A stretch of DNA of 64,000 nt from Aureliella helgolandensis. GTDB taxonomy: Bacteria > Planctomycetota > Planctomycetia > Pirellulales > Pirellulaceae. The notes below the pieces were generated by a model that searched no databases, was not told where the DNA came from, and saw only the letters and a list, made by a program, of their open reading frames with translations. Below, in pieces: positions 37,504 to 58,632 of the stretch. The stretch lies in NCBI RefSeq assembly GCF_007752135.1, contig NZ_CP036298.1:4836001-4900000 (forward strand), in the 5' to 3' direction. The number at the start of each line of letters is the position of its first letter. The stretch's first letter is position 1. The position numbers were made by a program, and so were the translations under genes.

Positions 37504-38673
37504 CTACCCAGATGCGAGAAAGCACTCGCTGGCCTTCTGCTGGCCGTGATGGCAACGCCGATTGTGCCGACGTGCGTCGGCGGACATGGTACTCGGGCGC
37601 CCCGCACAGGTACTCCGGCCAAAGTAGCGTTTGTAATCCCACACCAAGTCACGCCACATCGAGACCTCGATCCCAGTCGACGCTAAAGCCGACTGCAGTC
37701 GCTGCGGTACTTTGGAGGCGGCCTGCTTAATACGCTGGGCCGCCGTCCACTGCAGTAGCTCCAGGTACTTACTCCACTCCATGCACAAGAAGCCGCGGTC
37801 GCTGGCTCGCAATCCGCCCGCATGAGCCTGCGGGTCGTTCGACATCGTTTGACTGGCCAGTTCTAGAGGTGCCAGCCAGCTGTCTCGCAAGACACGCTTG
37901 CCGGTGGGATTGCGACGTTTCGCCTTTTGTTCCTGCATCCGCTGCTGCACGGGTGTCTCGCGTATTTTCTTCCCCGCTTCGGCGGTGGGCACCGCCCGTA
38001 GATCGAAGGCTGCTGAATCGATCTTTGCGCCCCGCTCAGCCTGGATGCGATCGTAGGCTGAGGTGTGTTCGGCTTGTTCCGGGGACTCGGCCATCGCCGC
38101 TCGAATGGGATTCAAGTCGACATACATGGCGCAGGCCAGCAAGCCCGCTTCGTCGGCGAGCCGTTGTGCTTTGAAGCGGCCTTCCCAGAATCGTCCCGTG
38201 CATTTCTCTTGAGCGTTCGCGAGCCGCGCGACAGGCTCGGCCAGAGCTCGCATAAACCAAGAGATATCAGACAAACGCGAGCGAATCACCGCCATGCGCT
38301 CCTGGTCTCTAATTAACGCCTGCACATCGGCCTCGGTGGGCTCTGCCAAATGCTCCTCAAACCGACGCCCGGGAAAGACTTTCAGCCACCGCTGGGCAAC
38401 CTCTTCCTCCGACCACAGGGCAACCACGTCGGGACGATTTCGCAAGATGATGTGGAGGTGTGAGCTGAGAATGGCATAGGTCAGTACGTCTATGCCGAAC
38501 GCGGAAGCGAGGGCTTCCATCCGTCGCCGGATCCACTCGCGGCGGAAGGAGTAATCCTTACCAGAGACGGGGTCGACGCCAGTCAGGAACGCTCTTCGTA
38601 CACAACGTTGTATGGCATGCACGATACAGACTTCGCCCGCTTGAAATTGTTCATTACGGTTGGGTCTACTCAT
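37504..38673 (-). CDS. REP-associated tyrosine transposase (RAYT, Y1/HUH family)
   Basis: The ATG at 38673 is chosen because AGGAGG stands eight bases before it; a GTG at 38682 overlaps that site. The 389-residue product has the HUH motif HLH (His72, His74) in AILSSHLHIILRNRPD, the GRFWEGRFKAQRL segment and the catalytic tyrosine in CAMYVDLNPIRAAM (Tyr184). These are hallmarks of the IS200/IS605-related TnpA-REP group, single-strand endonucleases that act on REP palindromes. The C-terminal 190 residues, basic and including RDSWLAPLELASQT and YLELLQWTAAQRI, form an extension absent from short RAYTs. Palindromic repeats with common arms lie on both sides of the gene, as expected for a domesticated or self-mobilising RAYT. 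Confidence 0.85.
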   Translation of the reverse strand: MSRPNRNEQFQAGEVCIVHAIQRCVRRAFLTGVDPVSGKDYSFRREWIRRRMEALASAFGIDVLTYAILSSHLHIILRNRPDVVALWSEEEVAQRWLKVFPGRRFEEHLAEPTEADVQALIRDQERMAVIRSRLSDISWFMRALAEPVARLANAQEKCTGRFWEGRFKAQRLADEAGLLACAMYVDLNPIRAAMAESPEQAEHTSAYDRIQAERGAKIDSAAFDLRAVPTAEAGKKIRETPVQQRMQEQKAKRRNPTGKRVLRDSWLAPLELASQTMSNDPQAHAGGLRASDRGFLCMEWSKYLELLQWTAAQRIKQAASKVPQRLQSALASTGIEVSMWRDLVWDYKRYFGRSTCAGRPSTMSADARRHNRRCHHGQQKASECFLASG

Positions 38674-38767
38674 CACAAGCACCTCCTAGGAGCACCGGTT
38701 CAGTCTAACATTCTGTCATCCTTCGTCAATTAAAATCTGGCAGACACCTACTTGACAATCCGCGGAA

Positions 38768-44826: not shown

Positions 44827-47800
44827 ATGACGACGCGATCTGATTCCCACGAGCCCGATCGCGGCCCTACCGATTTCGACCATTCCGTAGACGCAACAGA
44901 AAAGAATGGTGAGCAGACCCGAATCCCGCAAATGGGTCCCGATCCTAGCCCCACGACCCCGGATGGTCAGGCTTCTTGTGTCGAGCATGGGGCGAGAAAA
45001 AACGAACGGCCATTGCAACTGATTGATGCAATCGTGCCAGAGGGTGATTCTAGTCAACAATATTTGGTGATGGAGGAAATTGATCGTGGCGGTATGGGAG
45101 TCGTGCTCAAGGTTTGGGATGTAAACCTGCGGCGGGTCATCGCACTCAAAGTCATCCGTGGGGATGAATTGTCCAACGGCTCGCGAAGTGAGGAGGCGGG
45201 CACCGGATTGCTGAAGCGATTCGTCCACGAAGCGCAGATTACCAGTCAGTTGGATCATCCGGGTGTTGTTCCAATTCATGAGCTGTCGGAAGATCACGAC
45301 GGACGCAAATTCTTCACCATGAAGTATGTCCATGGTTTGACGCTCAAGAAAGTACTCCACAATATCCGCAATGGTAGTTCGCAGTGGACGGTACCGCGGA
45401 TTATTGATGTATTGATTCGCGTTGCTGAGACGTTGGCTTTCGCACACTCCAAAGGAATCATTCATCGAGATTTGAAACCTTCCAATATTATGGTCGGGCA
45501 GTTTGGCGAAGCCTATTTAATGGACTGGGGCATCGCCAAACAGCTTGGTGGCGAAGAAAATGTATCGCATTTTGAAAGTTCAGACACAGAGACGACCCAG
45601 GATTCGCAAACAAAATATGGTTCTGCGATTGGAACGCCCGCCTACATGTCCCCGGAACAGGCTGCCGGCAAACTCGAAGAGCTGAATGCTCGTTCGGACA
45701 TTTACTCTCTAGGCGCAATCCTTTACGAAACAGTAACGGGGCAGCATCCCTACGCAACCCAACCGCCGACCTCGAACTCAGACTTGCTGCGGCAAGTTGT
45801 CGAACGTCCTCCTCAAGGGGTTCGAGAGATCAACAAGAAAGTCCCAGCAGAGTTGGTTGCAATCATTGAAAAGGCGATGCATCGCCAACAGACGCAGCGC
45901 TACCAGAGTGCAGTCGAATTGGCAGAGGATCTCCGGGCGTTTCTTTCGCAGCGAGTTGTCTTAGCGTACCGGTCGGGACACATCACCCAATTAAAGAAGC
46001 TGATTGCGAGAAACCAAGGAATTGCAATCGCGGCCTTTTTAACTCTATCCACTATCGTCGCCGCTCTGAGTGTTGTCACGTTGATCCAATACAGTAATCA
46101 GTCTGCCATTGAATACAAGAACACACTACTACGTCAAAGCATCATCGAAAAGCAAGCTGCCGATGTGCGCGAGCGAGAAACGAGATTAGCGTCCGAAAGC
46201 TTGTCACTCACTCGACATTCACAAAATCTGAATACATCCGGGGATTCAACGCTCGCGACTCTCCTGGCCTTGGAAGCGATACATCGCAATCCTACCCCCG
46301 CCGCATATGAAACACTTTACGCTGCTGCCTCAGACTTGGTTCCCAATCGTAATATTACCTCGACGGCCGAACAGGTATCCGATTTAGCCTGGAGTGCCGA
46401 CGCGACGCTTTTGGCAATGGTCCAACGAGATGGTACCGGCGGAGTATGGAGAGTGACCGATGGTCAACAGACAGCGATGTTTGTCAATCATCGCGAAGAA
46501 CGCTTTACGTCAGTTGCTCTGTCAGCAGACAATCGTGTAGCGTTGACCTCCGGAGACAATGGCACATTGGCTACCTACGACGTTGGCAGCGGAGTTCGCC
46601 AGCAGACATTTTGGTTGGGCATTACGGAAGAGGAAGATGGAGATGGAATCCGCGGACGAAGACCCAACCTGATTGGTGCTCATTTTTGTCTTGAAGACAG
46701 GCACGCCATCGCCGTAGCTGAGAATGCAACATTGTATTTCATTGAACTTGCCAGCAACCAAGTTATTCAACTGAGCAAAGACGAAACGCCCCTGGGCACC
46801 ACTTGCTTGACCAGCGCTATCAATCAGTCTGGCGATCGCTTGGCGATTGCCTGCGACGATGGGAGCATTCATCTATGGGATTTGCGAGAACGGAAGAAAA
46901 TCGCGAGGTTTGACGGACCGAACCAACCGGTGTATTCCCTCTCGTTTTCGCCCGACGAACAACTGCTAATGGCCTGTCCCTCGCCCCCGCTTGGCTCCCG
47001 CATCGAAACGAAATCTAGCGTCTACTGTTGGAACGTGCACTCGGGTAGTTCGCGTAGTTTTAGGCCCCGTGAAATTTCGGTGACTTGCGCAGCCTTTCAC
47101 CCCGGTGGAAAACTCATTGGCGTTGGCCTGGAGAGTGGCGGCTGTTGCTTGGTGGATGTAGAGTCATGGGAAGCGGTGGCCGAGACGGACGTATTGAAAG
47201 AACCGCTACAAGAAATCTTATTCTCCCCCAATGGCCAGCAGTTGTTAACCTTGACCGGAGCCAATCGGCTCACTGCTTGGCAAGTGGTCAGAACCAATCA
47301 GAGGCTTGGAATCGAGTTGCAAGATCGCCTCATCGGGCACACGCTTCCCATCAGACACATCCGCTACGATTCCTCTGGAGAGCAAATCCTCTCGATTTGT
47401 AACAATGAGGTGCGGGTGTGGCAGACGTCCAAGGATCGACTGATACCTGACATAGGAACTTCGGTACCGCTAAGGCAAGTCTCTTTGAACTCGAAGGGCA
47501 GTCGCATTTTTATCCCTAGCTCGGATATGCAGCAAGGTTCATTGCTGACGTATCCTGGGCTTAAATTCATCGCAACCCTTGATTTCGGCGGAAAATACTA
47601 CTTTGGCTCGTTCCTAGAGACAGGCAACCTCTTTGTTTCCTCCAACTCGGATGGCCTGTGTCAGGTTTGGAATGAGGACCTAGGAACACTAGAGTACGAA
47701 TTCGACAATGGCATGCCAGCGCATCGAATCGTAGGTACGATCTCCGGCGACGGCGGCCAGAGTGAAGTGAGTCTGTGCGACAAAACGGGCTGTAATATCT

Positions 47801-50064
47801 GGGAGCTTCGAGAGGACAGCGAGGCTCTTCTGCGCGTGCGAATAGACCGCCAAGGTGTGTTGGCGCCTAACGGATGCCTGTACGCTCAGCCTATCGAAAG
47901 TGAAGGGCCGCAGCCAATCGGGGTTGTCAATCTGGAAGACAACAGCGAGAGTTTTTTTGAGAATTCCCACGGCTGCACCTTTGGAGGTTTCTCGTCGCGG
48001 GGCGAGTTGATCTGGGCCCATGGAGTTGAGAAGTCGGTCGTCAATCCACAGTTTTCCACGCACGTCGCGGTGTTTCGTCACCCAGACCGAAAGCTGCTCT
48101 TTTCCACCCCCGCCAGCGATCCCAAAATGACGCTCGTCAGCTCGGCTGAGTTTAGTCAAGATGGCAACAATATCCTGATCCACTACATCGCTCACCCAAA
48201 TTGTGCCGCAGAAATCTATTCGGTCGCCACAGGGGAGCTCACTGCCCGGATTGGAAAGCCAGCGGACCGCGTCCTCAATTGGGCCAACAACCTTCAGCGA
48301 GTTGTGACCTATTCCGATCAACGCGAACTCAAGATTTGGGATACGGGGCTCCAAGCACCCATCACATCCGTTCCCTTTCCTCATACGAAATACCCCGTGG
48401 TGACCTTGGCGCCGGATGGCCGGTCCTGCATTGTTCAATTTAAGAGTCATGAAGCGGGTTCGGGTAGGCTGACCGATCGCGTTGGTGTATGGAGCACTCA
48501 GACGGGCCAGTTGCTGACGATGCTCCCCGCAGGCAATACCATCCACCCTTCCAATGCAATCCATCAAGCCAGCTCAATGCTGCTGACCTCTTCTAGCGAA
48601 GGAAGTCTTCGTGTTTGGCCGTTAGACATTGTCGACCGCGTATTGAAGTTCATTCCCCGCAGGTTGACTGCTGAAGAGCAAGCAACCTACGGCCTGCCTG
48701 TAATTGCGTCACTCGATTCGGCGCAAGCGGAATTGGATTTAACATCCGAGCTAACGCGCCGCCTTCAATTACTCACGCCAGTCACTCCAGAACGCCGTCG
48801 TCTCACATGGGATCTCTTCACGGAGATTTCAGAATGGTTGGGAGACGCGAGCGACCGCGAACGTAGCGCAATGCAGAACGCGGTAAAGGCGCTCACCCAA
48901 GGTTCGCCCGATGTCGATCCTCGCACACTTGCAAGAGCCTCTGACCTATTCACACAGCTGGGAGAGCCCTTACTTGCGTTAGAGTTTTTGGAGAGAGCGG
49001 CAGCTCATCCTGAAGCCTGGGATCTCCAAGCAAAGTTAGTCGAGCTGCGTTTACAATCGAGCCCTATGGTGACGAGTTACCGTGCGGTGCAAGCACTGTA
49101 TGAAGCGACCCAAGCGGAAAATGATCAGGACCAGGCAAATCGCGAGCTAGAAGCTGCGCGTCGATGGGCCAAGAAGCAGGCTCCTCACTATGCGGAGTAC
49201 GTTTACATCTTGGAATTATTGCATGAAGAACGCCTTGGAGAAGCAATTTCCTCCCTCAATCAACTGCTTGAAGCGGCCCCAACCATCCCCCTTGAGCCAA
49301 TTCTGCTGCTGTCCGATTGCGAACTCAAATTGCATGGACCGCAAGCTGCAGAGAGCGTGATTCGTCGAACCTTAGAGGAGCATCCACAGGCCCCCATGCC
49401 ACTCTGGCAGCGGTGGTGCCAATTGTGCTTCTCCGAGCTGGAGCGAACTCCCCGAGAGATTATGCAGCAGATGTCGAAGTGGCCAGCCCTAGAAACAGGG
49501 CACACCAATGCGGCGCAGGTCCAAGCCATGTTGGAGTCCCTGATGATCCATCATGAGTATTTGCTCAATTGCGGAGGCGAGGATTACCGAGCAGGGGACG
49601 GTCGCGTGTGGCATGCCGATTCCTTCTACACAGCGGGGCTTCGATTTTTCGAGAGTGAAGGTGAACCACTCCTCTTTGCTGCCCCGATCGACAACACGCT
49701 CGACGACGTGCTGTACCAGACCGAGCGTTACTTTGATCATCGCACGCGCGACAAGCCGTTGGGCTATGGAATTCCTCTACCCAATGGCAACTATCGCGTA
49801 ACGTTAGGGTTTGCAGAAATATATGATGCCGATCGCTCTTTTGATGTGCTGGTGGAGGGTGAACCGGTAGCCAAGGGTTACAATCCGGCAACGCCGGACG
49901 ATCTGTGGGCAACAGCGGATGAATTCGAATTTCAGACGGAGGTCTTGGATGGGCAACTTGATATTGAATTCTTGAGTCGCAACAATGCGGATGCTAAGAT
50001 CTCTTGCATCGCGATCAAGTCCATCAATCAACTTGAGGAGCAAGCGAGTATTGATTCGCAATGA
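44827..50064 (+). CDS. Giant Ser/Thr protein kinase with WD40 region and malectin-like C terminus
   Basis: The 1745-residue product has a PknB-type kinase domain (about 80-385): glycine loop IDRGGMGVVLKV, Lys108 in ALKVI, HRDLKPSN near 213, DWG in place of the usual DFG (YLMDWGIAK) and GTPAYMSPEQAAG. A transmembrane helix (IAAFLTLSTIVAALSVVTLI) lies near 398-420. Residues about 500-1290 form WD40-type blades (IHLWDLRE, VRVWQTSK, LRVWPLD). A helical TPR-like region follows (about 1300-1560), then a malectin-like domain (about 1577-1735) with LLNCGGEDYRAGDGRVWHAD and NGNYRVTLGFAEIYDADRSF. Planctomycetes have many kinase-WD40 proteins, but the malectin cap suggests the outer part binds carbohydrate and signals inward. 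The kinase is intracellular by topology. Confidence 0.92.
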   Translation: MTTRSDSHEPDRGPTDFDHSVDATEKNGEQTRIPQMGPDPSPTTPDGQASCVEHGARKNERPLQLIDAIVPEGDSSQQYLVMEEIDRGGMGVVLKVWDVNLRRVIALKVIRGDELSNGSRSEEAGTGLLKRFVHEAQITSQLDHPGVVPIHELSEDHDGRKFFTMKYVHGLTLKKVLHNIRNGSSQWTVPRIIDVLIRVAETLAFAHSKGIIHRDLKPSNIMVGQFGEAYLMDWGIAKQLGGEENVSHFESSDTETTQDSQTKYGSAIGTPAYMSPEQAAGKLEELNARSDIYSLGAILYETVTGQHPYATQPPTSNSDLLRQVVERPPQGVREINKKVPAELVAIIEKAMHRQQTQRYQSAVELAEDLRAFLSQRVVLAYRSGHITQLKKLIARNQGIAIAAFLTLSTIVAALSVVTLIQYSNQSAIEYKNTLLRQSIIEKQAADVRERETRLASESLSLTRHSQNLNTSGDSTLATLLALEAIHRNPTPAAYETLYAAASDLVPNRNITSTAEQVSDLAWSADATLLAMVQRDGTGGVWRVTDGQQTAMFVNHREERFTSVALSADNRVALTSGDNGTLATYDVGSGVRQQTFWLGITEEEDGDGIRGRRPNLIGAHFCLEDRHAIAVAENATLYFIELASNQVIQLSKDETPLGTTCLTSAINQSGDRLAIACDDGSIHLWDLRERKKIARFDGPNQPVYSLSFSPDEQLLMACPSPPLGSRIETKSSVYCWNVHSGSSRSFRPREISVTCAAFHPGGKLIGVGLESGGCCLVDVESWEAVAETDVLKEPLQEILFSPNGQQLLTLTGANRLTAWQVVRTNQRLGIELQDRLIGHTLPIRHIRYDSSGEQILSICNNEVRVWQTSKDRLIPDIGTSVPLRQVSLNSKGSRIFIPSSDMQQGSLLTYPGLKFIATLDFGGKYYFGSFLETGNLFVSSNSDGLCQVWNEDLGTLEYEFDNGMPAHRIVGTISGDGGQSEVSLCDKTGCNIWELREDSEALLRVRIDRQGVLAPNGCLYAQPIESEGPQPIGVVNLEDNSESFFENSHGCTFGGFSSRGELIWAHGVEKSVVNPQFSTHVAVFRHPDRKLLFSTPASDPKMTLVSSAEFSQDGNNILIHYIAHPNCAAEIYSVATGELTARIGKPADRVLNWANNLQRVVTYSDQRELKIWDTGLQAPITSVPFPHTKYPVVTLAPDGRSCIVQFKSHEAGSGRLTDRVGVWSTQTGQLLTMLPAGNTIHPSNAIHQASSMLLTSSSEGSLRVWPLDIVDRVLKFIPRRLTAEEQATYGLPVIASLDSAQAELDLTSELTRRLQLLTPVTPERRRLTWDLFTEISEWLGDASDRERSAMQNAVKALTQGSPDVDPRTLARASDLFTQLGEPLLALEFLERAAAHPEAWDLQAKLVELRLQSSPMVTSYRAVQALYEATQAENDQDQANRELEAARRWAKKQAPHYAEYVYILELLHEERLGEAISSLNQLLEAAPTIPLEPILLLSDCELKLHGPQAAESVIRRTLEEHPQAPMPLWQRWCQLCFSELERTPREIMQQMSKWPALETGHTNAAQVQAMLESLMIHHEYLLNCGGEDYRAGDGRVWHADSFYTAGLRFFESEGEPLLFAAPIDNTLDDVLYQTERYFDHRTRDKPLGYGIPLPNGNYRVTLGFAEIYDADRSFDVLVEGEPVAKGYNPATPDDLWATADEFEFQTEVLDGQLDIEFLSRNNADAKISCIAIKSINQLEEQASIDSQ

Positions 50065-50203
50065 GTTACGAATGTGTTGCGTAGTATCACGAGCTCGTAC
50101 GGATGGCTCACTCTGGATGTTCTCCCCCAAAAAAGTAGCATGCAGCTAGTCGAGCACTTCGAGCACTTCCCCCGTTTCGTCCCTGAATTAAGGTTCCTCA
50201 ATT

Positions 50204-50422
50204 ATGCCTGAATCAAGCAGTTCCAGTAGCTCTAGCAGTTCCAGTTCCAGTTCCAGTAGCTCAAGCAGTTCGAGCTCGATACCTGGAGGATACTGCACAT
50301 ATCGCTACACCTTAGAAGGCTGGGAATTGGAAGACAACAGTTGTCGATCGGGTTGGGAACCCAGTCCCCCCACCATCCCCAATCCCAATGTAGGGCAAAC
50401 CTATCCTGGGGAATGTCTGTAA
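50204..50422 (+). CDS. Poly-serine Cys-containing small peptide
   Basis: A 72-residue product. AAGG stands ten bases before the ATG. Residues 4-25 are 22 consecutive serines, encoded by six different codons with the hexamer AGTTCC repeated in the middle, so the tract is kept at protein level though it may change length by slippage. The rest, 47 residues, is rich in Gly, Pro, Trp and Tyr and has three cysteines (Cys31, Cys47, Cys71), including GGYCTYRYTLEGWELEDNSC and TYPGECL. There is no signal peptide or membrane helix. It stands alone between the giant kinase and two glycosyltransferase genes on the same strand; the first lies 129 bases downstream. The serines could be sites for O-glycosylation by those enzymes. 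I know no named family. Confidence 0.75.
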   Translation: MPESSSSSSSSSSSSSSSSSSSSSSIPGGYCTYRYTLEGWELEDNSCRSGWEPSPPTIPNPNVGQTYPGECL

Positions 50423-50551
50423 AGCGAGTCTTACGGTTGAGTCCGCGTATCCGATAGTCCTGTCTCGGAGATTCTTTCCGTGCAGGACGCGGTGTAAGAC
50501 CTTGCAGGACAGATTTAAAGCCGCCCATCGTCTCGATAGAAGTCGGACTGG

Positions 50552-51559
50552 ATGAATCTCTTTTTTTTTGGTTGGCCGTCGGAGTATGGCGGCGCAGATA
50601 CCAAGGCTGCGCATTTACTGCAATTGCTTGCTCCTCATCTCTCGATTACGGTCATACCGAATTCGTCCCTGTCTCTGCAAGAAAAATGCTGGACTGACAA
50701 GTTCGATCAATGGGGAATTGCCTATAGATCCCTCGAGTCCTTGCCACAACAACTCGAGGGCACAGCCCTGGCGCTCTGCAACGCTCACTTTTTTACCGGC
50801 GGGATCTATTCGATCGCCCGCAGACGTGGCTTGAGAGTCGTATGGTCATCGGAAATGATGTGGCACCATCGGCATGAAGTCGAACTGATTCAAGCCGGAG
50901 CCATTGATCGCCTATTGTACGTCTCGGAAGTTCAACGAACGTGCCTGAACTACGAATCGTTTTGCAATGTCCCAACCCGCATGGTAGGCAACTACATTTC
51001 ACCTCAGGCATTCCCTTTCGTCCCACGCAAGGTCGACGGATCGATCACCATTGGCCGCCTATCTCGCGCCGATCTGGACAAATACCCGGAAGACTTCCCC
51101 GTGTTCTATGAGGCGTTACAAATACCTGGGGCGCAATTTCGCGTTATGGCCTGGTCCCCTGCATTGCAGGAAAAGTATCGTTGGCACCATTTCGACGAGC
51201 GTTGGACACTGCTTGAACCCAACGCACTCGCTGCAGGCGATTTCCTGCAGAGTCTTGACCTATTCATCTACACCCTGGGGCACCATTTTGTAGAATCCTG
51301 GGGACGCAGCACCTTGGAAGCAATGCTCACGGGAGCGATCCCCCTGGTCCCCCATGGACATAATTTTGACCATTTGATCGAACACGGCGTGACGGGTTTC
51401 CAGTGCTCGGACTTTCGGGAATTCCAAACGTACGCAATGGAACTAGCTGACAACCCCATGGCTCGCCAACAGATGTCGCATGCCTGCCGCGAGCGGGCTG
51501 AGCAACTCAATGATGCGGTCACTCATTTAGAGATTTGGCTGGAGGCATTGGATGTCTGA
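50552..51559 (+). CDS. Glycosyltransferase, GT4/GT1-like (GT-B fold)
   Basis: The 335-residue product starts with FFFGWPSEYGGADTKAAHLL, the N-terminal glycine-rich loop of GT-B enzymes, and has ESWGRSTLEAMLTGAIPLVP in the C-terminal domain. This is the E-x7-E motif that holds the nucleotide sugar in GT4 enzymes (ESWGRSTLE). NYISPQAF and a GRLSRADLDKYPEDFP segment mark the donor-domain start. No membrane segment is present; it should be cytosolic or peripherally membrane-bound. The next gene overlaps its end by eight bases. The poly-serine peptide gene precedes it. The sugar donor and acceptor are unknown; the peptide is one candidate acceptor, a cell-surface polysaccharide another. Confidence 0.85.
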   Translation: MNLFFFGWPSEYGGADTKAAHLLQLLAPHLSITVIPNSSLSLQEKCWTDKFDQWGIAYRSLESLPQQLEGTALALCNAHFFTGGIYSIARRRGLRVVWSSEMMWHHRHEVELIQAGAIDRLLYVSEVQRTCLNYESFCNVPTRMVGNYISPQAFPFVPRKVDGSITIGRLSRADLDKYPEDFPVFYEALQIPGAQFRVMAWSPALQEKYRWHHFDERWTLLEPNALAAGDFLQSLDLFIYTLGHHFVESWGRSTLEAMLTGAIPLVPHGHNFDHLIEHGVTGFQCSDFREFQTYAMELADNPMARQQMSHACRERAEQLNDAVTHLEIWLEALDV

Positions 51560-52352
51560 ACAACCAAGATTTTGCTATTGGTCCGTGGCTGACGGGTTTT
51601 ATTCCCATTTAATGTCCGCCTGCATTGCCTCAGCCAGAGCGACCGGAGTCACGCAGGATTTCCACGTGTGGACCGATAAACCGATTCCAGGTGCCACGTG
51701 TCATCCGTGCGGAAAATATGAGCACAAGAACTATCTCTTCAAGTTTGACTTCCTGCTGAAAGCCGTGGAACTGCCGTACGACTATTTCATCTTCCTGGAT
51801 GCTGACAACTATTTCGTGCGGCATCCGGGCGACATATTGCGATTGGTCCGCGAAGCTCCCGTGCATGTTTTGCTAGAGAGCGATTGCACACACCCAACGA
51901 ACACTCGCCCCGATTGGTGGGGATGCCCGCTGCAGGAATATGCTCGATTGATGCGTTTGCAGGGCGTGCAGAGTCGGTCGATTTTCAATACTAACGCAGG
52001 ATTTTGGATCGTTCATCGCGACGTAGCAAGACGTGCCGTAGAACTCGGGCTGGAGTTTTGGCACGCTGCCCACACCGCAGGGTATTCGTTTACGGAAGAG
52101 GCACCACTGGCCTATGTAGGTCATATGCTGATGGGCAACCCCTACACTCACACGCTTGAAGAAAATGTCGATGCTTGGGCATCGGATTGGACAGGAGTCT
52201 TCGCGGATCGTCTTCCCAGCGATCGAGAGTGGATGTTCACCGATTACTTAGCTGGACACCAGACGCGGGTACGTCCGGCGATAGTGCATTGCATGCGGAG
52301 CAAACAGGCCATGTATGAGCAGACGCAGAAAAATCGGCACGACAGTCTTTAA
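51552..52352 (+). CDS. GT-A-fold glycosyltransferase (GT8-like)
   Basis: GGAGG stands six bases before the ATG, inside the end of the previous gene, with which it overlaps by eight bases, so translation is coupled. The 266-residue product opens with RFCYWSVADGFYSHLMSACI and has the DxD metal/nucleotide motif in FIFLDADNYFVRHPGDIL, then FNTNAGFWIVHRDVARRAVE, as in GT8-like retaining enzymes. Its short size and lack of transmembrane helix are ordinary for such enzymes. It is the last gene of the poly-serine peptide group. Both transferases may act in turn on one acceptor. Confidence 0.82.
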   Translation: MSEQPRFCYWSVADGFYSHLMSACIASARATGVTQDFHVWTDKPIPGATCHPCGKYEHKNYLFKFDFLLKAVELPYDYFIFLDADNYFVRHPGDILRLVREAPVHVLLESDCTHPTNTRPDWWGCPLQEYARLMRLQGVQSRSIFNTNAGFWIVHRDVARRAVELGLEFWHAAHTAGYSFTEEAPLAYVGHMLMGNPYTHTLEENVDAWASDWTGVFADRLPSDREWMFTDYLAGHQTRVRPAIVHCMRSKQAMYEQTQKNRHDSL

Positions 52353-52373
52353 ATCTAGCAAACCTCTTCCACG

Positions 52374-52409
52374 CCATAAAAAAACGCCGCACAAAAAAGT
52401 GCGGCGTTT
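52374..52409 (-). terminator. Terminator of ppdK on the minus strand
   Basis: An 11-bp stem, AAACGCCGCAC (52382-52392) with GTGCGGCGTTT (52399-52409), closes a 6-base A loop. Read on the minus strand it runs into a T7 tract at 52378-52384, giving a standard Rho-independent terminator 43 bases after the ppdK stop. It may also serve the plus-strand glycosyltransferase genes, as the two transcripts converge here. Confidence 0.88.
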
Positions 52410-52451
52410 GAGGCTGCTAGCAGCGTGGTAGATATCTCATCACTTCAAGAA

Positions 52452-55100
52452 CTACTTCGCGTTACGCAAAGCTGCTTGAGCGGCAGCAAGCCGAGCGATG
52501 GGCACTCGGAACGGTGAACAGCTCACGTAGTCGAGGCCTACCGTATGGCAGAATTGCACCGATGCTGGATCTCCGCCATGTTCTCCACAGATGCCCAACT
52601 TGAGCTTGTCTTTAATCGAACGGCCCTTCTTGCACGCAATTTCCACCAACTGCCCTACGCCACTCGTATCGAGCGACTGGAATGGATCGACTAGCAAGAT
52701 GTCTTGCGACAGATAGTCGGGCAGGAAGGAGTTGATATCGTCACGACTGAAACCAAAGGTCATTTGAGTCAGGTCATTGGTTCCGAAGCTGAAGAAGTCA
52801 GCTTGCCCAGCGATTTCATCGGCAGTCAATGCAGCGCGAGGCACTTCGATCATGGTGCCGATCAAGATGTCCAGCTTGCCAGTGAAGTTCTTAGCCTTCT
52901 TCACCGCTTCGATGGTCTCTTCGGTCTTGCGGCGAAGCAGTTTCAATTCGGCTTCGGTACCAACCAACGGGATCATAATCTCTGGAATGGCATCGATTTT
53001 CTTGAGCGTGCATTCGATGGCCGCCTCAACGATCGCCGTAACCTGCATTTCCAGGATTTCGGGATAGGTAATGCTCAGGCGACAACCACGGTGGCCAAGC
53101 ATCGGATTGAATTCATGCAGACTATCGACCCGAGCCTTGATGTCAGCGGCACTGACTCCCAATTCCTTGGCGAGCTCGGCTTGTCCCTTTTCATCATGAG
53201 GCACAAACTCGTGCAGCGGAGGATCGAGCAAACGCACGGTAACGGGCAGGCCGTTCATCGCGGTGAAGATCCCAATGAAATCCTCGCGTTGGAAGGGCAG
53301 CAACTTCGCCAGCGCTGTGCGGCGAGTAGCTTCGTCGTTGGCTACGATCATTTGCCGAATCGCTAGGGTACGGTCACCACCGAAGAACATGTGTTCAGTA
53401 CGGCAGAGCCCGATACCTTCAGCACCAAACTCGCGAGCCCGAGCGCTATCTTCTGGCGAATCCGCATTTGTGCGAACCTTGAGCGTGCGGAACTTATCGG
53501 CCCACACCATCAACTTGGCGAAATCGCCGGACAGTAGAGCTGGCTGGGTTGCGATGGAGCCTTCAGCGACTTCACCGCTGGTACCATTGATGCTGAGCTC
53601 GTCGCCCTCGCCATAGGTCTTACCGCTGATGACAGCGGTCTTGTTCTTGGCGTCGATTTTGACACCTGCAGCACCAGCGATACAGCATCGTCCCCAACCG
53701 CGAGCAACCACGGCAGCATGACTCGTCATGCCCCCAGTACTCGTCAGAATACCAGCGGCGGCGTGCATGCCGTCGACATCTTCCGGGCTAGTTTCCTTGC
53801 GGATCAGAATTACTTTCTCGCCCTTCAATGCACGAGCTTTGGCGTCTTCTGCGGTGAAGGCGAGTTTACCCACAGCTGCACCAGGAGAAGCTGGCAGGCC
53901 CTTGGCAATCTTTTCAGCCTTAGCCCAAGCTGCGGTATCGAAACTAGGCAGCAGCAATTGTGTTAAATCGCCAGCTGGCACGCGCAACACGGCTTCCTTT
54001 TCCGTGATCAGCTTTTCTTCCACCATGTCGCAAGCGATCTTGACCGCAGCCATACCGGTTCGCTTACCAGTACGGGTTTGCAGCATGTACAGAGTTCCCT
54101 TTTCGATGGTGAACTCGATGTCCTGCATCTCGCTGTAGTGGGTTTCGAGCTTCGTCTTGATCGCCATCAATTCTTGATAGACAGGATCATTCCACTTGCT
54201 CATCTCTTCGGTTGGCTGAGGCGTGCGGATACCGGCTACAACGTCTTCACCCTGAGCATTGATCAGGAATTCGCCGAAGAATTTGTTTTCGCCAGTGTTG
54301 GGATTGCGGGTAAAGGCAACACCAGTACCGGAATCATCTCCCATGTTGCCATAAACCATGGATTGGCAATTGACGGCGGTTCCCAGCAAGCCACGAATGC
54401 CCTCAATTTCGCGATACTTAACCGCCTTGTTGGTCATCCAACTCTTGAATACCGCTTCGACGGCCTTCTCGAGCTGCTTGATAGGATCTTGGGGGAAGTC
54501 CTCGCCAGTTTCCTTCTTGTAAAGCGCCTTGTAGGCATCGCACAGTTCCTTCAGCCCTTCGGCTGGAACCTGGGTATCCTCTTCGGTCTTGTACTTCTTC
54601 TTAATTGCATCGAAGGCTTCTTCGAAGTGCTCATGGTCTACGCCCATCACCACGTCACCGAACATATTGATCAGGCGGCGGTAAGCATCGTAAGCAAAAC
54701 GTTCGTTGCTGGTCGCCTTCGCCAACCCAGCGGTTGAAACGTCGTTCAACCCTAGATTGAGAATCGTATTCATCATGCCAGGCATCGAGACGGCAGCACC
54801 CGAACGCACCGAGAGGAGCAGGGGATTCTTGTCATCACCAAACTTCTTGCTCAATTCCTTCTCGAGCGTCTCAACATTCGTTTTAACGTCGGCCATGAGT
54901 GCCGCGGGCATTTTCCCGCCATTGGCATAATAATCGCCACAAACTTCTGTGGTGATGGTGAATCCAGGAGGTACAGGCAAGCCAATTGAGGTCATTTCAG
55001 CTAGATTGGCACCCTTGCCGCCCAGGATTGATTTGCTTACGCCAGTTCCCTCGGTCCGCGTTTTGCCGAAGTAGTAGATCATTTTTTTCGAGCTGGACAT
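52452..55100 (-). CDS. ppdK: Pyruvate, phosphate dikinase
   Basis: The ATG at 55100 gives 882 residues, the normal length; the frame is open 43 codons further but that part would overlap its own promoter. The N-terminal ATP-grasp domain shows MIYYFGKTRTEGTG, GGKGANLAEMTSIGLPVPPG and VSMPGMMNTILNLGLND. The swivelling phosphohistidine domain has the catalytic His in GGMTSHAAVVARGWG near 460, and the C-terminal PEP/pyruvate barrel ends with GTNDLTQMTFGFSRDD and KLGICGEHGGDPASVQF. The enzyme interconverts ATP, phosphate and pyruvate with AMP, pyrophosphate and PEP, in glycolysis or gluconeogenesis. It stands alone with its own promoter and terminator. Confidence 0.96.
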   Translation of the reverse strand: MSSSKKMIYYFGKTRTEGTGVSKSILGGKGANLAEMTSIGLPVPPGFTITTEVCGDYYANGGKMPAALMADVKTNVETLEKELSKKFGDDKNPLLLSVRSGAAVSMPGMMNTILNLGLNDVSTAGLAKATSNERFAYDAYRRLINMFGDVVMGVDHEHFEEAFDAIKKKYKTEEDTQVPAEGLKELCDAYKALYKKETGEDFPQDPIKQLEKAVEAVFKSWMTNKAVKYREIEGIRGLLGTAVNCQSMVYGNMGDDSGTGVAFTRNPNTGENKFFGEFLINAQGEDVVAGIRTPQPTEEMSKWNDPVYQELMAIKTKLETHYSEMQDIEFTIEKGTLYMLQTRTGKRTGMAAVKIACDMVEEKLITEKEAVLRVPAGDLTQLLLPSFDTAAWAKAEKIAKGLPASPGAAVGKLAFTAEDAKARALKGEKVILIRKETSPEDVDGMHAAAGILTSTGGMTSHAAVVARGWGRCCIAGAAGVKIDAKNKTAVISGKTYGEGDELSINGTSGEVAEGSIATQPALLSGDFAKLMVWADKFRTLKVRTNADSPEDSARAREFGAEGIGLCRTEHMFFGGDRTLAIRQMIVANDEATRRTALAKLLPFQREDFIGIFTAMNGLPVTVRLLDPPLHEFVPHDEKGQAELAKELGVSAADIKARVDSLHEFNPMLGHRGCRLSITYPEILEMQVTAIVEAAIECTLKKIDAIPEIMIPLVGTEAELKLLRRKTEETIEAVKKAKNFTGKLDILIGTMIEVPRAALTADEIAGQADFFSFGTNDLTQMTFGFSRDDINSFLPDYLSQDILLVDPFQSLDTSGVGQLVEIACKKGRSIKDKLKLGICGEHGGDPASVQFCHTVGLDYVSCSPFRVPIARLAAAQAALRNAK

Positions 55101-55200
55101 GTGCCTTGTGAGCCTCCGAAAGTTTCGTGATAGAACCAATAAATTGGCAGTTGGATGAGCCCTTATGGGCTTGACATTGCGCAATAAAATTGAGCGAGCG

Positions 55201-55229
55201 AGTGTACTGGCGCTCGCAAAAATCGTCAA
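55201..55229 (-). promoter_or_regulatory. Sigma-70-type promoter of ppdK
   Basis: On the minus strand TTGACG (55224-55229) and TACACT (55201-55206) are separated by exactly 17 bases. Transcription should start near 55194, leaving a leader of about 94 bases before the ATG at 55100. Its position rules out translation from the farther in-frame TTG at 55229. Confidence 0.7.
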
Positions 55230-55244
55230 TCGGGAGCCCCCCGC

Positions 55245-56279
55245 ATGCTTACCTCAGAAGGCTTAGATTTGCCCTACAAGTGTACCGATTCTAACGCTCA
55301 AACCGGCTATCTTCTCGTTGGACATGGCACGCGGAATCCGGACGGTGCTGCGCAAATGAAGAGGGTCTACGAACAATTTGCGCAACTGGCCCCCGATTTA
55401 ATGGCCGAGTATGGCTTTTTGGAACTGGCCCAGCCGGACATTCCGACCGCGATCCAAAAGCTGGCCCAGCGGGGGGCCCGACAACTTGTAACCATTCCCT
55501 TGCTCCTGTTCACCGCTGGGCATGCTCAGCAGGACATTCCCCAGGCGGTTGAGCATTCTGCTAGCAATTGCGGGATGGAGATCCTACGGCAGACCCCTGC
55601 CTTGGAATGCGCCCGCCCGATTCTCGAACTCTCGGCCAAGAGGTTTCGCCAAGCGGTATGCCTGCCCCATCGGCCGTGTGGAAACCGCCAGCGTTCACCT
55701 AGCAACTCCACGGAAAACCAAGCCCCCCCCAGTAGAACCAATTGCAATTTTACTCAGCAGGGCCCGCCCCCCCTTTCGGTGCTATGTGGCTTCCACACCC
55801 CTTCCGGGGACTGTGCAGCCTCCCATGTCGACCTGATGTGCCCGCAGCGTCCGGCAGGGGAGGTCGATGAGGCTTGCGTAGCAGCCTGCGGGCAGATTCA
55901 TTGCGGTCGAGTGGGCTTGCTGATGGTCGGCCGGGGCAGCAGTTCCCCCCCCGCTACGGCCATGATGCACCAGTTCACGGAACAGCGTGTCCAGCTAACC
56001 CGCGTCGCCTGGCGGCAAACGGCCTTCATCCATGCTCAGTCCCCAAACGTGGAACAGGGGCTCGACGCCTTGGAGGCGGAGCAAGCACCCATCGCAGTAG
56101 TCCAGCCACACCTTCTATTTGAGGGGGAACTGATGGGACGCTTGCGTCAACAGGTCGCCCTTCGCCAAGCCCGCAATCCCCAGCAAAAATGGTTGCTTAC
56201 AGCAACGCTTGGCACAGATAACGCTTTAGCCGCAGCACTGGAGAGCGTGGCGCGTCAGGCAAACTGCGCTGGCGGCTGA
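55245..56279 (+). CDS. cbiX: CbiX-type sirohydrochlorin chelatase, two-domain
   Basis: GGGAG stands eight bases before the ATG. The 344-residue product has two CbiX domains. The first (about 20-145) starts with GYLLVGHGTRNPDGAAQ, carrying the metal-binding His of the HG motif, and has ELAQPDIPTAIQKLAQRGAR and ITIPLLLFTAGHAQQDIP-like VTIPLLLFTAGHAQQDIPQA with a second His. The second (about 220-340) starts with VGLLMVGRGSSSPPATAMM, where the His is replaced by Arg, and continues FIHAQSPNVEQGLDALEAEQ and IAVVQPHLLFEGELMGRL. Long CbiX proteins insert cobalt or iron into sirohydrochlorin for cobalamin or siroheme. No other tetrapyrrole genes lie in the window. A 60-residue Pro/Asn-rich linker joins the domains. 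Confidence 0.88.
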   Translation: MLTSEGLDLPYKCTDSNAQTGYLLVGHGTRNPDGAAQMKRVYEQFAQLAPDLMAEYGFLELAQPDIPTAIQKLAQRGARQLVTIPLLLFTAGHAQQDIPQAVEHSASNCGMEILRQTPALECARPILELSAKRFRQAVCLPHRPCGNRQRSPSNSTENQAPPSRTNCNFTQQGPPPLSVLCGFHTPSGDCAASHVDLMCPQRPAGEVDEACVAACGQIHCGRVGLLMVGRGSSSPPATAMMHQFTEQRVQLTRVAWRQTAFIHAQSPNVEQGLDALEAEQAPIAVVQPHLLFEGELMGRLRQQVALRQARNPQQKWLLTATLGTDNALAAALESVARQANCAGG

Positions 56280-56337
56280 TTTAACTCCAACAATTTCCTC
56301 AAAAACCGACCAGGAACGTGCAACAATCGTCCTCTCC

Positions 56338-56402
56338 CAGCAACATTCATGTTGCTGCGAGGTGTAGGATTCCGTACGATTTTGTCGGAAAACTGATTTT
56401 CC
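56338..56402. promoter_or_regulatory. Two short hairpins between cbiX and prc
   Basis: CAGCAACA (56338-56345) pairs with TGTTGCTG (56350-56357) around a 4-base loop. GGAAAA (56387-56392) pairs with TTTTCC (56397-56402) around CTGA. Neither is followed by a T-run. The first may end the cbiX transcript; the second sits in the leader of the protease gene. Confidence 0.35.
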
Positions 56403-56487
56403 AGTGAAGGTAACATCACCGGCAAGTTTTGAGTCCCGAGTGGGACCTAATTGTTTGACTTTTAAGAATGCATGCGAAAGTTGGCTT

Positions 56488-58632
56488 ATGCGAACGAATA
56501 TAAAACTGACCGGGTTAGGGCTGCTAGCAAGTTTTGCTGGCCTCTGGGTAGCGGGAAATATTGTCGTGGCTCAACAAGCACCACGCGAAAACCTCGCAGT
56601 GCAGGACATGACGACCGCGCGTCCGCTGGATCACACGATCATTCAAACCGTCGCGCGATACATGGATCGCCAGCATTTGTCGAAGCACCGCATGGATGAC
56701 GAAATATCGAAGCGTGCGTTCGACCAATTCCTTCGAGCACTCGACCCACTCAAGCTCTACTTCTTGCAGAGCGATATCGAGGCGTTTCACTCGAGTCTGA
56801 CGCGGTTGGATGATTATGCCTTGGCAGGCAAAATGGACTTTGCGATCGACGCCTTTAAGACGTTTCTCAAACGCGTGGATGAACGCGTAGAAATGGCGCA
56901 TGCCGCCATCGATAGCGAACACGATTTTACCGTTGCAGAAAAACTGGCCATCGACCGCGATGTCATTGAATATCCTGCCTCGGATGCAGAGGCTCAAGAC
57001 CGAATGCGTCGGCAAATCAAATATCAATTGCTGGTGCTCGAAAGCGAAAAGATCCAAGCCGACAAGGACAAGGAATCGGGCAAGGAATTAACTGACACGC
57101 AGCGCGTTCTAGCAGCGGATCCCAATGAGGATCCTCGGGAGCGTTTGCATCGCCGTTATCGAACGATCCACAAGCGTTGGCACCAAACCGATGCCGATGA
57201 GCTGCTGGAGATATATGTCTCGGCCATTACCACCAGTTTCGACCCTCACACCTCGTACATGTCGCCCGACACGCTCGACAACTTCCGGATTGTGATGAGC
57301 CTCAATCTAGATGGAATTGGTGCTCAACTAATGAGTGAAGATGGCTACACCAAGCTGACCAGCATTGTCCCTGGTGGTGCCGCGGACAAGGACGGTCGAC
57401 TCAAGCCAGGAGATAAAATCGTCCAAGTGGCACAAGGCGAAGACGGAATGCTGGAAGACGTTGTCGACATGAAGCTGGACGACGTAGTTCACCGCATTCG
57501 CGGGACAGCTGGCACGGTCGTAAGGCTCGGCGTCATGCCAGCCGCTGGCGGTGAGCTGCAAATCTATGACATTACGCGGGCCAAGATTACCTTGGATGAC
57601 AGTGCGGCGCGAAGCGAAGTGGTTGAATATGGGAAGAAGGCGGATGGCCAACCATTCAAGTTCGGCTATATCGATTTGCCGAGCTTCTACATGGACATGC
57701 AGGCAGCACGCGATAATTCCGATAGCTTCCGCAGTACCACGCGTGACGTCAGCTTAATCCTCAGTGATTTTCGTGCTCAAAAAGTCGATGCTGTCGTCTT
57801 AGACCTCAGCCGCAATGGAGGAGGCAGCCTTACTGAAGCCATCAACCTCACCGGTCTCTTCGTCGACCAAGGACCTGTCGTGCAGGTCAAGAACCCTCAG
57901 GGGCAGGTCGACGTTTACGACGACTCAGCCTCCGGTGTCGCCTGGGATGGACCACTTGTCGTGATGACCAGCAAAGAGAGTGCCAGCGCCAGTGAAATCC
58001 TGGCAGGTGCTATCCAAGATTATAGGCGAGGCATCATCGTCGGTGACCCAACCACACACGGAAAGGGAACCGTACAAAGCTTGATTGATCTGGGCGAGCA
58101 ACTCATGGGCATTCCGGGTGAAATGGGTGCACTCAAGTTGACCATCCAGCAATTCTATCTCCCGGGTGGCAAAAGCACGCAGCGGGCAGGCGTCTTGTCG
58201 GATGTCGTGCTGCCAGCCATTACAGCGAGTATCGACAACTCCGAGTCGGATCTGGATTACGCATTGCCAAACGATACGGTTCGCGAGGCCAAGCACATGG
58301 ACTACAAGATGGTAGATGGTGCGGTGTTAGGTATTTTGCGAGCCAACAGTACCCAGCGGGTTAGCAATTCCAAAGGATTCGAAAAGCTGTTTCAGCGTAT
58401 CGAAATGTTCAAGCAACAGAAGGACGAAGATTACGTTTCGCTCAAACGGGAAGACTTCCTGCGGAGACGCAATGAACTCGACGCACAGCGGGAAGAGCAA
58501 ACGCAGGCACTCGATTCCCAAGTGCCTAAGAAGGACGTCTTCAAGATGGACTACTACAATGAAGAGATCTTGAACGTTGCTAAAGACTACGTCGAAGCGA
58601 TGAGCAAATTAGACTTGGCCCAAGCTAGCTAG
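56488..58632 (+). CDS. prc: Carboxy-terminal processing protease (Prc/Tsp, family S41)
   Basis: The ATG at 56488 is preferred since a signal peptide follows directly (LTGLGLLASFAGLWVAGNIV); a GTG at 56404 would add 28 unlikely residues. The 714-residue product has an N-terminal helical domain with RYMDRQHLSKHRMDDEISKR and FLRALDPLKLYFLQSDI as in E. coli Prc, a PDZ domain (SIVPGGAADKDGRLKPGDKI), and an S41 peptidase domain with VVLDLSRNGGGSLTEAI, the catalytic Ser in SKESASASEILAGAI and the catalytic Lys in THGKGTVQSL. A charged C-terminal tail follows. It degrades or trims exported proteins from their C termini in the periplasm. A strong terminator follows. Confidence 0.94.
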   Translation: MRTNIKLTGLGLLASFAGLWVAGNIVVAQQAPRENLAVQDMTTARPLDHTIIQTVARYMDRQHLSKHRMDDEISKRAFDQFLRALDPLKLYFLQSDIEAFHSSLTRLDDYALAGKMDFAIDAFKTFLKRVDERVEMAHAAIDSEHDFTVAEKLAIDRDVIEYPASDAEAQDRMRRQIKYQLLVLESEKIQADKDKESGKELTDTQRVLAADPNEDPRERLHRRYRTIHKRWHQTDADELLEIYVSAITTSFDPHTSYMSPDTLDNFRIVMSLNLDGIGAQLMSEDGYTKLTSIVPGGAADKDGRLKPGDKIVQVAQGEDGMLEDVVDMKLDDVVHRIRGTAGTVVRLGVMPAAGGELQIYDITRAKITLDDSAARSEVVEYGKKADGQPFKFGYIDLPSFYMDMQAARDNSDSFRSTTRDVSLILSDFRAQKVDAVVLDLSRNGGGSLTEAINLTGLFVDQGPVVQVKNPQGQVDVYDDSASGVAWDGPLVVMTSKESASASEILAGAIQDYRRGIIVGDPTTHGKGTVQSLIDLGEQLMGIPGEMGALKLTIQQFYLPGGKSTQRAGVLSDVVLPAITASIDNSESDLDYALPNDTVREAKHMDYKMVDGAVLGILRANSTQRVSNSKGFEKLFQRIEMFKQQKDEDYVSLKREDFLRRRNELDAQREEQTQALDSQVPKKDVFKMDYYNEEILNVAKDYVEAMSKLDLAQAS

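What the first reader, a model, noticed from the sequence alone, without database searches (positions are those of the whole stretch)
50204..52352. Poly-serine peptide followed by two coupled glycosyltransferases: a possible new glycopeptide locus
A 72-residue peptide has 22 serines in a row (residues 4-25), no signal peptide, and a 47-residue tail with three cysteines. It sits directly upstream of a GT4-like and a GT8-like transferase that overlap by eight bases. The serine codons are mixed, so selection is on the protein. A serine run is an ideal O-glycosylation platform, and small Cys-containing peptides next to transferases recall glycocins, but there is no peptidase, transporter or immunity gene here. 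It could be a glycosylated storage, surface or signal peptide. I know no described system of this form.
Basis: partly seen in the sequence, partly recalled or inferred. Interest (0 to 1): 0.78.

Follow-up and report, generated by a model that had tools for sequence, protein, structure and literature searches.

The report
Serine-run peptide cassette with two glycosyltransferases
A planctomycete bacterium carries a small peptide with 22 serines in a row, set between a giant signalling kinase and two sugar-attaching enzymes; the same gene set recurs in other bacteria and related pieces occur in prophage-like regions, so it is probably a dedicated, undescribed system in which the enzymes modify the peptide, though no chemistry has been shown.

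Summary
Window 50204-50422 encodes a 72-aa peptide (Ser 4-25, three Cys), followed by two glycosyltransferase (GT) genes that overlap by 8 bp. The genome is very probably Aureliella helgolandensis Q31a, by exact length.

(1) Directly upstream is a 1745-aa Ser/Thr kinase with WD40 and malectin domains. The order kinase > Ser-run peptide > GT4 > GT-A recurs in two genomes of another family, with GTs 66-69% identical and the overlap conserved. (2) The tail belongs to a module family found in 27 of 397 class genomes: in kinase-adjacent peptides, often with GTs downstream, and in prophage-region proteins with Ser/Thr runs next to or fused to GTs.

Against: some module peptides have a kinase but no GT; some GT pairs have no Ser-run neighbour; many GT-linked module peptides lack a Ser run.

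Best explanation: the peptide is the dedicated partner, probably the O-glycan acceptor, of the two GTs. No glycosylation is demonstrated. "GT8" is not confirmed; the fold is GT-A, remotely nearest GT6.

The parts
44827..50064 (+). 1745-aa Ser/Thr kinase: kinase domain, one hydrophobic, probably transmembrane segment (about 398-423), WD40 propeller region, C-terminal malectin domain
   Evidence: Pfam PF00069 6e-37, WD40 families, PF11721 malectin 4e-17; hydropathy; 36-37% identical homologue directly upstream of the peptide in L093/L092
50204..50422 (+). 72-aa Ser-run peptide: M-P-E, 22 Ser, 47-aa tail module with 3 Cys
   Evidence: coding signature; homologues at the same place in L107/L092 and L108/L093
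50213..50278 (+). Serine run, residues 4-25, mixed Ser codons
50279..50419 (+). Tail module (residues 26-72); in the three cassette peptides it ends P-N-P-x2-G-x-T-Y-P-G-x-C
   Evidence: profile matches in 27 of 397 class genomes; module alignment; refined HMM
50552..51559 (+). GT4-type glycosyltransferase, GT-B fold, EX7E motif present in 7 of 7 aligned homologues
   Evidence: Pfam PF00534 2.7e-4, below its gathering score; profile matches BshA chains; AlphaFold model pLDDT 88, Foldseek HepE E 2e-15 and BshA; motif
51552..52352 (+). Second glycosyltransferase, GT-A fold with DxD motif (L-D-[AS]-D); family unassigned, remotely nearest GT6; overlaps the GT4 gene by 8 bp
   Evidence: AlphaFold model pLDDT 90, Foldseek GT6 A/B blood-group transferases E 1e-8, TM about 0.5; homologues; overlap also in L107, L108, L109

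Best explanation
The locus is a mobile four-gene cassette. A membrane Ser/Thr kinase with WD40 and malectin domains beyond its membrane segment senses or gates the system. The cassette supplies its own small acceptor protein, and two soluble glycosyltransferases with overlapping genes (a GT-B/GT4 enzyme and a GT-A enzyme) build a short glycan on that peptide, most likely O-linked along the Ser run. The Cys/Trp/Pro tail is the recognition or display module. The same module, Ser/Thr runs and GTs occur together in prophage-like regions of related bacteria, so phage and host probably share and exchange this glycosylation kit.

Shown (by sequence): gene order, its recurrence, coding of the peptide, predicted folds of both GTs, the module family and its prophage relatives. 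Inferred: that the peptide is the GT substrate, that the Ser run carries the sugars, that the kinase regulates the system, that the set moves as a unit, and what the product does at the cell surface.
For: The kinase > peptide > GT4 > GT-A order is conserved in three genomes from two families. GT identity is 66-69% and kinase identity 36-37%. The GT overlap ATGTCTGA is conserved in 4 of 7 pair loci.

Homologues of the GT-A enzyme directly follow and overlap Ser-run proteins in L120 and L121, in regions with phage capsid, adaptor and tail families (L171) or head protein, endolysin and primase families (L172, L121).

The module is in one chain with a GT25 domain in a prophage with portal and capsid genes (L087). 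Module proteins with Ser/Thr runs precede GT2 genes in L089, L090, L091 and L098; Pfam confirms GT2 in the first three.

GT within 5 kb: 18 of 30 module loci versus 1 of 20 random points, p 7e-5; without the 8 loci that supplied reference GTs 10 of 22, p 0.004.

A Ser run of 6 or more is encoded within 7 kb in 7 of 11 loci holding the GT-A family, versus 2 of 20 random 20-kb regions, p 0.003.

Neither GT has a strongly hydrophobic stretch and the peptide has no signal-like segment, so all can meet in the cytoplasm.
Against: L094 has a kinase plus a Ser-run module peptide but no GT found within 5 kb. L103 and L104 have a kinase plus a module peptide and no GT. Verrucomicrobial GT pairs L111 and L112, and the remote relatives L122 and L123, have no Ser-run neighbour. 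Many GT-linked module peptides (L095-L097, L102, L105, L106, L131, L133) have no Ser run; GT linkage is 10 of 13 loci with a run and 10 of 19 without (p 0.27), so the run itself is not proven to be what the GTs need. One prophage-region module protein (L088) has no GT that Pfam confirms. GT folds do not reveal acceptors. The GT reference set used for counting came partly from the same loci. In L108 the peptide reading frame is broken once. No experiment shows a glycan.
Confidence: 0.42

Rival explanations
1. The peptide is primarily the partner or substrate of the upstream Ser/Thr kinase: a secreted or cytosolic output or sensor peptide whose Ser run is phosphorylated. The GTs are a separate output or an occasional add-on.
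For: A kinase is within 5 kb of 17 of 30 module loci against 0 of 20 random points. Kinase-module pairs exist without GTs (L094 with a Ser run, L103, L104). In Roseiconus (L109) kinase and Ser-run Cys protein are adjacent while the GT pair lies on the other side. A Ser run is also an ideal phospho-acceptor.
Against: Most kinase-linked module peptides lack Ser runs. Prophage-region module proteins with Ser/Thr runs have no kinase within 5 kb, and most have a GT (L088 is the exception for GT). The peptide's kinase link does not explain why GT4 and GT-A are the best conserved genes of the cassette.
Confidence: 0.22
2. The Ser run is only a flexible linker, like the polyserine linkers of polysaccharide-degrading enzymes. 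The tail module is a binding or capping domain, perhaps for glycans, and the GTs make an exopolysaccharide that the peptide binds.
For: Run length varies from 6 to 22 among the three cassette homologues. Modules occur without runs next to GTs. [quoted passage not shown] The GT4 fold is nearest HepE and BshA. The remote relative L122 lies in what looks like a glycan cluster (by eye).
Against: In the window the run is at the N terminus and links no second domain. No flippase, polymerase or export gene was seen by eye between the kinase and the dikinase-like gene downstream.
Confidence: 0.2
3. The cassette is a remnant of phage tail genes captured by the chromosome, with a decayed tail tip and its GTs, now with no defined host function.
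For: Module, Ser runs and GT-A homologues sit in prophage-like regions of related genomes. Distribution is sporadic: 2 of 241 Pirellulaceae genomes.
Against: No phage structural gene was seen by eye beside the window cassette, L092 or L093. The cassette is kept with two-thirds identical GTs and synonymous codon change in the peptide across families, which indicates selection. Pattern-based scans of viral contigs with both GT profiles found no relative.
Confidence: 0.1

Closest known systems
Serine-rich repeat adhesin loci (GspB/Fap1 type) with GtfA-GtfB and SecA2 (recalled; not searched here as a system)
   Same: Dedicated GTs encoded with a Ser-rich acceptor that is modified before export
   Different: Here the peptide has only 72 aa with a pure Ser run and no signal peptide or sorting signal; the second GT is GT-A; a kinase is part of the set; no accessory Sec genes were seen
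Glycocins (sublancin/SunS type; recalled)
   Same: Small Cys-containing peptide beside a GT
   Different: No leader motif, peptidase, ABC transporter or immunity gene seen in the window locus; two GTs; long Ser run
Virion glycosylation in mycobacteriophages (Freeman et al. 2023, seen only as a reference in PMC11256854; abstract and passages of the latter read)
   Same: Phage-encoded GTs proposed to decorate virion structural proteins, as the prophage relatives here suggest
   Different: The window cassette has no virion genes; the putative acceptor is a free peptide; a kinase belongs to the host version
Staphylococcal SdgA/SdgB glycosylation of SD-repeat proteins (PMC3794999, start of abstract seen in a listing)
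   Same: GTs that modify Ser-rich repeats; SdgB (7vfo) is a structural match of the window GT4, rank 27
   Different: Sequence identity 13% in the structural alignment; here a pure Ser run on a small peptide, and a GT-A partner enzyme
Polyserine linkers of carbohydrate depolymerases (PMC2386152, passages read)
   Same: Runs of Ser in bacterial proteins
   Different: There the run separates functional domains of an enzyme; here it is N-terminal on a 72-aa peptide

Membership tests
SRR glycoprotein locus | Dedicated GT genes adjacent to a Ser-rich acceptor | tested here: met
   Window and L092/L093 gene order; that the peptide is an acceptor is not shown
SRR glycoprotein locus | GtfA/GtfB-type pair (both GT-B, recalled) | tested here: not met
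   Second GT has a GT-A fold
SRR glycoprotein locus | Signal peptide, SRR repeats, wall anchor, accessory Sec (recalled) | tested here: not met
   72-aa peptide without hydrophobic segment; neighbours are a kinase and a pyruvate phosphate dikinase-like gene (by eye)
Glycocin cluster | Leader peptide, bifunctional peptidase/ABC exporter, immunity (recalled) | tested here: not met
   No such gene in the ORF list 45000-57000 by inspection; no NCBIfam match of the peptide reaches its cut-off
GT4 (GT-B) glycosyltransferase | GT-B fold and EX7E motif | tested here: met
GT8 glycosyltransferase | Match to a GT8 family model | tested here: not met
   Only sub-threshold PF03407; no PDB sequence match; fold nearest GT6 at TM about 0.5, GT-A with DxD
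Protein O-glycosylation system | Glycan on the acceptor | not testable with these tools
   Needs mass spectrometry
Prophage or phage-derived island | Virion or replication genes at the locus | tested here: not met
   None seen by eye near the window cassette; met for relatives L087, L088, L089, L121/L172, L120/L171; not shown for L090 and L091
Known anti-phage defence system | PADLOC models for the set of genes | tested here: inconclusive
   Kinase matches kinase models (PD-T4-6 and others), mostly over the kinase domain; peptide and GTs match none

The most novel reading that the evidence does not exclude
A kinase-gated protein-glycosylation cassette that brings its own acceptor peptide: a membrane kinase with a sugar-binding-type (malectin or FGE) outer domain reads glycans outside the cell and controls multi-site O-glycosylation of a poly-Ser 'glycan carrier' peptide by a coupled GT-B/GT-A pair. 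The carrier module is shared between planctomycete chromosomes and prophage tail regions, so host and phage would draw on a common pool of glycosylated surface peptides.
Probability: 0.17. Interest if true: 0.85.

Novelty: new variant of a known kind. Interest (0 to 1): 0.62.

Why it matters
Dedicated protein-glycosylation loci are known mainly from adhesins of Gram-positive bacteria, glycocins and a few phages (recalled). This would be a distinct, recurring kind in Planctomycetes, with a tiny natural acceptor of almost pure serine (useful for enzymology), a signalling kinase in the same cassette, and a module shared with prophage regions. It also gives a handle on a family of small planctomycete proteins: the window peptide matched no Pfam or PHROGs family above threshold.

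Tried and rejected
Full-peptide search of 60 relatives: 51 of 60 genomes 'match' at E<=1. Tail search of 392 phylum genomes: 15 genomes at E<=0.02. Of the 51 loci opened (window copies left out), an HMM re-check found the module only in L011 (G021) and L042 (G378); the rest are taken as chance. Not all matches had been given a locus.

A simple 'Ser run = glycosylation' argument was rejected, because GT linkage is not clearly stronger with runs: 10 of 13 versus 10 of 19. These 32 loci are the 30 plus the window and L121; a run means 6 or more consecutive Ser/Thr in the module ORF, L093 being counted by the Ser run in its neighbouring frame and L126 by eye.

Rows dropped: three of the 21 GT-positive loci (L127, L128, L130). 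L127 and L130 rest on proteins of 417 and 391 aa without any Pfam match, L128 on a similar protein not put to Pfam; their second, opposite-strand hits were not examined. In one search one of 7 loci (L113, 32 residues, E 1e-4) was dropped as too weak. In one search the second genome, G965, was not opened; its frame length equals that of Roseiconus L109, so it may be the same genome. L123 (G562, partial match of 60 residues) was kept as a miss in the 7 of 11 count. In that count the L108 Ser-run ORF has 47 aa, under the 50-aa floor used for the background. The L132 module match is a 36-aa frame and may be chance; it is counted among the 30.

Insertion site: gene order around the dikinase-like gene is not shared with three same-genus loci (L167, L169, L170); L168 ends at a contig end. 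So no empty site could be shown. GC content is unremarkable. Phage collection searches with the peptide, L121 and L088 proteins gave nothing. The first genome-contig scan, with the GT4 alone, gave nothing; the second, with the GT-A alignment, worked. The tail-module fold was not predicted. The L120 tail module was recognised by eye only; the HMM did not report it. The 2086-aa neighbour in L110 looks RHS-like by eye, but Pfam did not confirm it.

Papers: searches gave no paper; one found 119 papers of which 15 were shown, none on such a system by title or abstract start; one gave one unrelated paper. Searches (53 papers, 10 shown; 5; 6) were for comparison systems. This is a limited open-access library.
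Full report
WHAT IS THERE. The 72-aa ORF at 50204-50422 is exactly as described: 22 consecutive Ser (residues 4-25) in mixed codons, then a 47-aa tail with three Cys. At the Ser frequency of the neighbouring kinase about 2e-18 such runs are expected in a genome of this size. In 20 other 20-kb regions from four genomes, two contained an ORF of at least 50 aa with a run of 6 or more Ser; the longest was 7. The window lies in an 8,439,957-base single-contig genome. That equals the published length of Aureliella helgolandensis Q31a (PMC7716919, passages read). The same paper counts 73 glycosyltransferases (Table 2) and 6419 protein-coding genes.

THE KINASE WAS OVERLOOKED. Upstream, 139 bp away and on the same strand, is a 1745-aa protein with a Ser/Thr kinase domain, one hydrophobic segment near residues 398-423, a WD40 region and a C-terminal malectin domain. 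Downstream of the GTs lies a convergent pyruvate phosphate dikinase-like gene (52452-55229, minus strand; named by eye, not put to a family search).

THE WHOLE CASSETTE RECURS. The profile and synteny work led to G715 (L092) and G749 (L093). Both carry kinase > Ser-run peptide > GT4 > GT-A. GT4 is 66-69% and GT-A 67% identical to the window proteins; the kinase is 36-37% identical. The spacing is tight: 43-50 bp from kinase to peptide and, in L108, 19 bp from the end of the module frame to GT4. The L107 peptide has 6 Ser and the same tail ending (VPNPTPGQTYPGTC, against IPNPNVGQTYPGEC in the window). In L108 the six-Ser start and the tail lie in two frames; a frame break or an assembly error cannot be told apart. 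Codon comparison of the window with L107 shows protein-level constraint: position differences are 18, 19 and 34, and 19 of 23 conserved residues use different codons.

THE GT PAIR IS MORE WIDESPREAD THAN THE CASSETTE. GT4 plus GT-A pairs occur in 7 loci: window, L107, L108, Roseiconus nitratireducens (L109), WY5.bin88 (L110) and two Verrucomicrobia MAGs (L111, L112). The 8-bp overlap ATGTCTGA is identical in window, L107, L108 and L109. EX7E (GT4) and DxD (GT-A) are present in 7 of 7. A Ser-run protein is encoded within 7 kb in 5 of these 7 pair loci: the peptide itself in 3, a 196-aa Ser-run Cys protein behind another kinase in Roseiconus, and a 2086-aa protein with an N-terminal Ser run in L110. 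L111 and L112 have none. Adding the other GT-A relatives, both phage-like loci L120 and L121 have a Ser-run protein directly upstream, while L122 and L123 have none. In all that is 7 of 11, against 2 of 20 background regions, p 0.003. One of the 7, L108, rests on a 47-aa frame, just under the 50-aa floor of the background. L122 lies among GT4-like and methyltransferase-like genes and looks, by eye, like an ordinary glycan cluster. The pair is rare and scattered: the GT-A enzyme is in 1 of 60 relatives searched, the own genome, in 2 of 241 Pirellulaceae genomes and in 6 of 170 genomes of the G715 family, one of them only a partial match; GT4 is in 1 of 270 phylum genomes, again the own one. In some searches only the first 8 to 15 candidates per genome were scored.

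THE TAIL IS A MODULE FAMILY. A profile made from five segments found matches in 27 of 397 class genomes, the own one included, at E<=0.001, with at most 16 candidates scored per genome. A refined profile in 392 phylum genomes at E<=1e-5 found 4, the own one included, with at most 18 scored. Only one copy passes in the own genome; the next match has E 0.37. The consensus is about G-x5-W-x-G-x2-W-x-L-x4-C-x2-G-x4-PP-x2-PG-x3-GQ-x5-C. No PDB sequence matches it at E<=1, and Pfam and PHROGs give no family to the window peptide above threshold.

THREE CONTEXTS. (i) Short peptides directly behind giant kinases. Four of these kinases put to Pfam (L094, L095, L104, L105) are kinase-nSTAND1-FGE proteins. 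Many of the peptides have a hydrophobic stretch and no Ser run, and are followed by GT4 proteins of about 480-750 aa; Pfam supports GT4 in L095, L096, L097, L102, L105, L106, L131 and L133. (ii) Large module proteins, most with Ser/Thr runs, in prophage-like regions: L087 (portal and major head protein; GT25 domain in the module protein itself), L089 (tape measure; GT2 next door) with its near copy L098, L120/L171 (major head, head-tail adaptor, minor tail; GT-A homologue next door), L121/L172 (primase, head protein, endolysin; GT-A homologue next door), and L088 (portal; no GT confirmed by Pfam). L090 and L091 have the same arrangement with GT2, but their phage status is not shown: no PHROGs structural match in the proteins tested. 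(iii) G378 (L056), where a 526-aa protein with Ser runs and three modules lies among GT genes.

COUNTS. Of 30 module loci (29 and one, the window not counted), 21 have a GT-like gene within 5 kb by phmmer. I keep 18 after removing three that rest on proteins without Pfam support; 14 of the 18 were confirmed by Pfam. Background: 1 of 20, p 7e-5. Leaving out the 8 loci that supplied reference GTs: 10 of 22, p 0.004. Kinase: 17 of 30 against 0 of 20, p 1e-5; one locus (L095) also supplied a kinase reference. Bias: the reference proteins came from some of these loci, and several loci are from related genomes or from the same genome (G715, G742 and G749 gave two each).

FOLDS. GT4: AlphaFold mean pLDDT 88; Foldseek best HepE (E 2e-15), then BshA, PglA, PimB', and SdgB at rank 27. 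Second GT: mean pLDDT 90; GT-A; best matches are the GT6 blood-group transferases (E 1e-8, TM about 0.5), and in the viral library an uncultured Caudovirales phage protein (TM 0.64). So the label GT8 is not supported; the enzyme is an unassigned GT-A transferase. That GT6 and GT-A are the right names for these PDB entries is recalled knowledge.

HOW IT MOST LIKELY WORKS. Two soluble GTs whose genes overlap, with a small cytosolic Ser-run peptide encoded just upstream, suggest that the peptide is made to be modified by them, with the kinase as controller. The strongest support is the recurrence of module/Ser-run protein plus GT in two different settings, chromosome cassette and prophage. The strongest objections are kinase-module peptides without GTs (L094, L103, L104), GT pairs without Ser-run neighbours (L111, L112), and GT-linked modules without Ser runs, which may mean that the module, not the run, is what the GTs recognise. 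The kinase-substrate and linker rivals therefore stay open.

STATUS. I found no description of this arrangement in the searches made, which cover only an open-access library. It resembles known dedicated glycosylation loci in logic, but fails membership tests for SRR adhesin loci and glycocins.

Noticed in passing
L095 9215-10053, L096, L097, L102, L105, L106, L131, L133: A wider planctomycete arrangement: giant kinase (nSTAND1-FGE where tested), small peptide with the module and a hydrophobic stretch, then a GT4 of about 480-750 aa with a Cys-rich N-terminal region, and often a second protein of about 380 aa that Pfam does not name.
   Followed up: partly
L087 8513-10930: A prophage protein that combines a Ser-run/Cys module with a GT25 domain in one chain.
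   Followed up: partly
L109 15411-16001: Roseiconus nitratireducens has a 196-aa protein with two Ser runs framing a different Cys-rich segment, directly behind a kinase-nSTAND1-FGE gene.
   Followed up: partly
L099 2-6745: A 2247-aa protein with an RHS repeat also carries two copies of the module and a 12-Ser run.
   Followed up: partly
L108 8798-8981: The homologous peptide in this MAG is split over two frames just after the Ser run and Pro residues.
   Followed up: no
L111 7769-9757: A further GT-like gene (by eye) lies beside the verrucomicrobial GT pair, on the other strand.
   Followed up: no
window 37504-38682: An ORF that looks like a REP-associated/Y1-type transposase by eye lies about 6 kb upstream of the kinase.
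   Followed up: no
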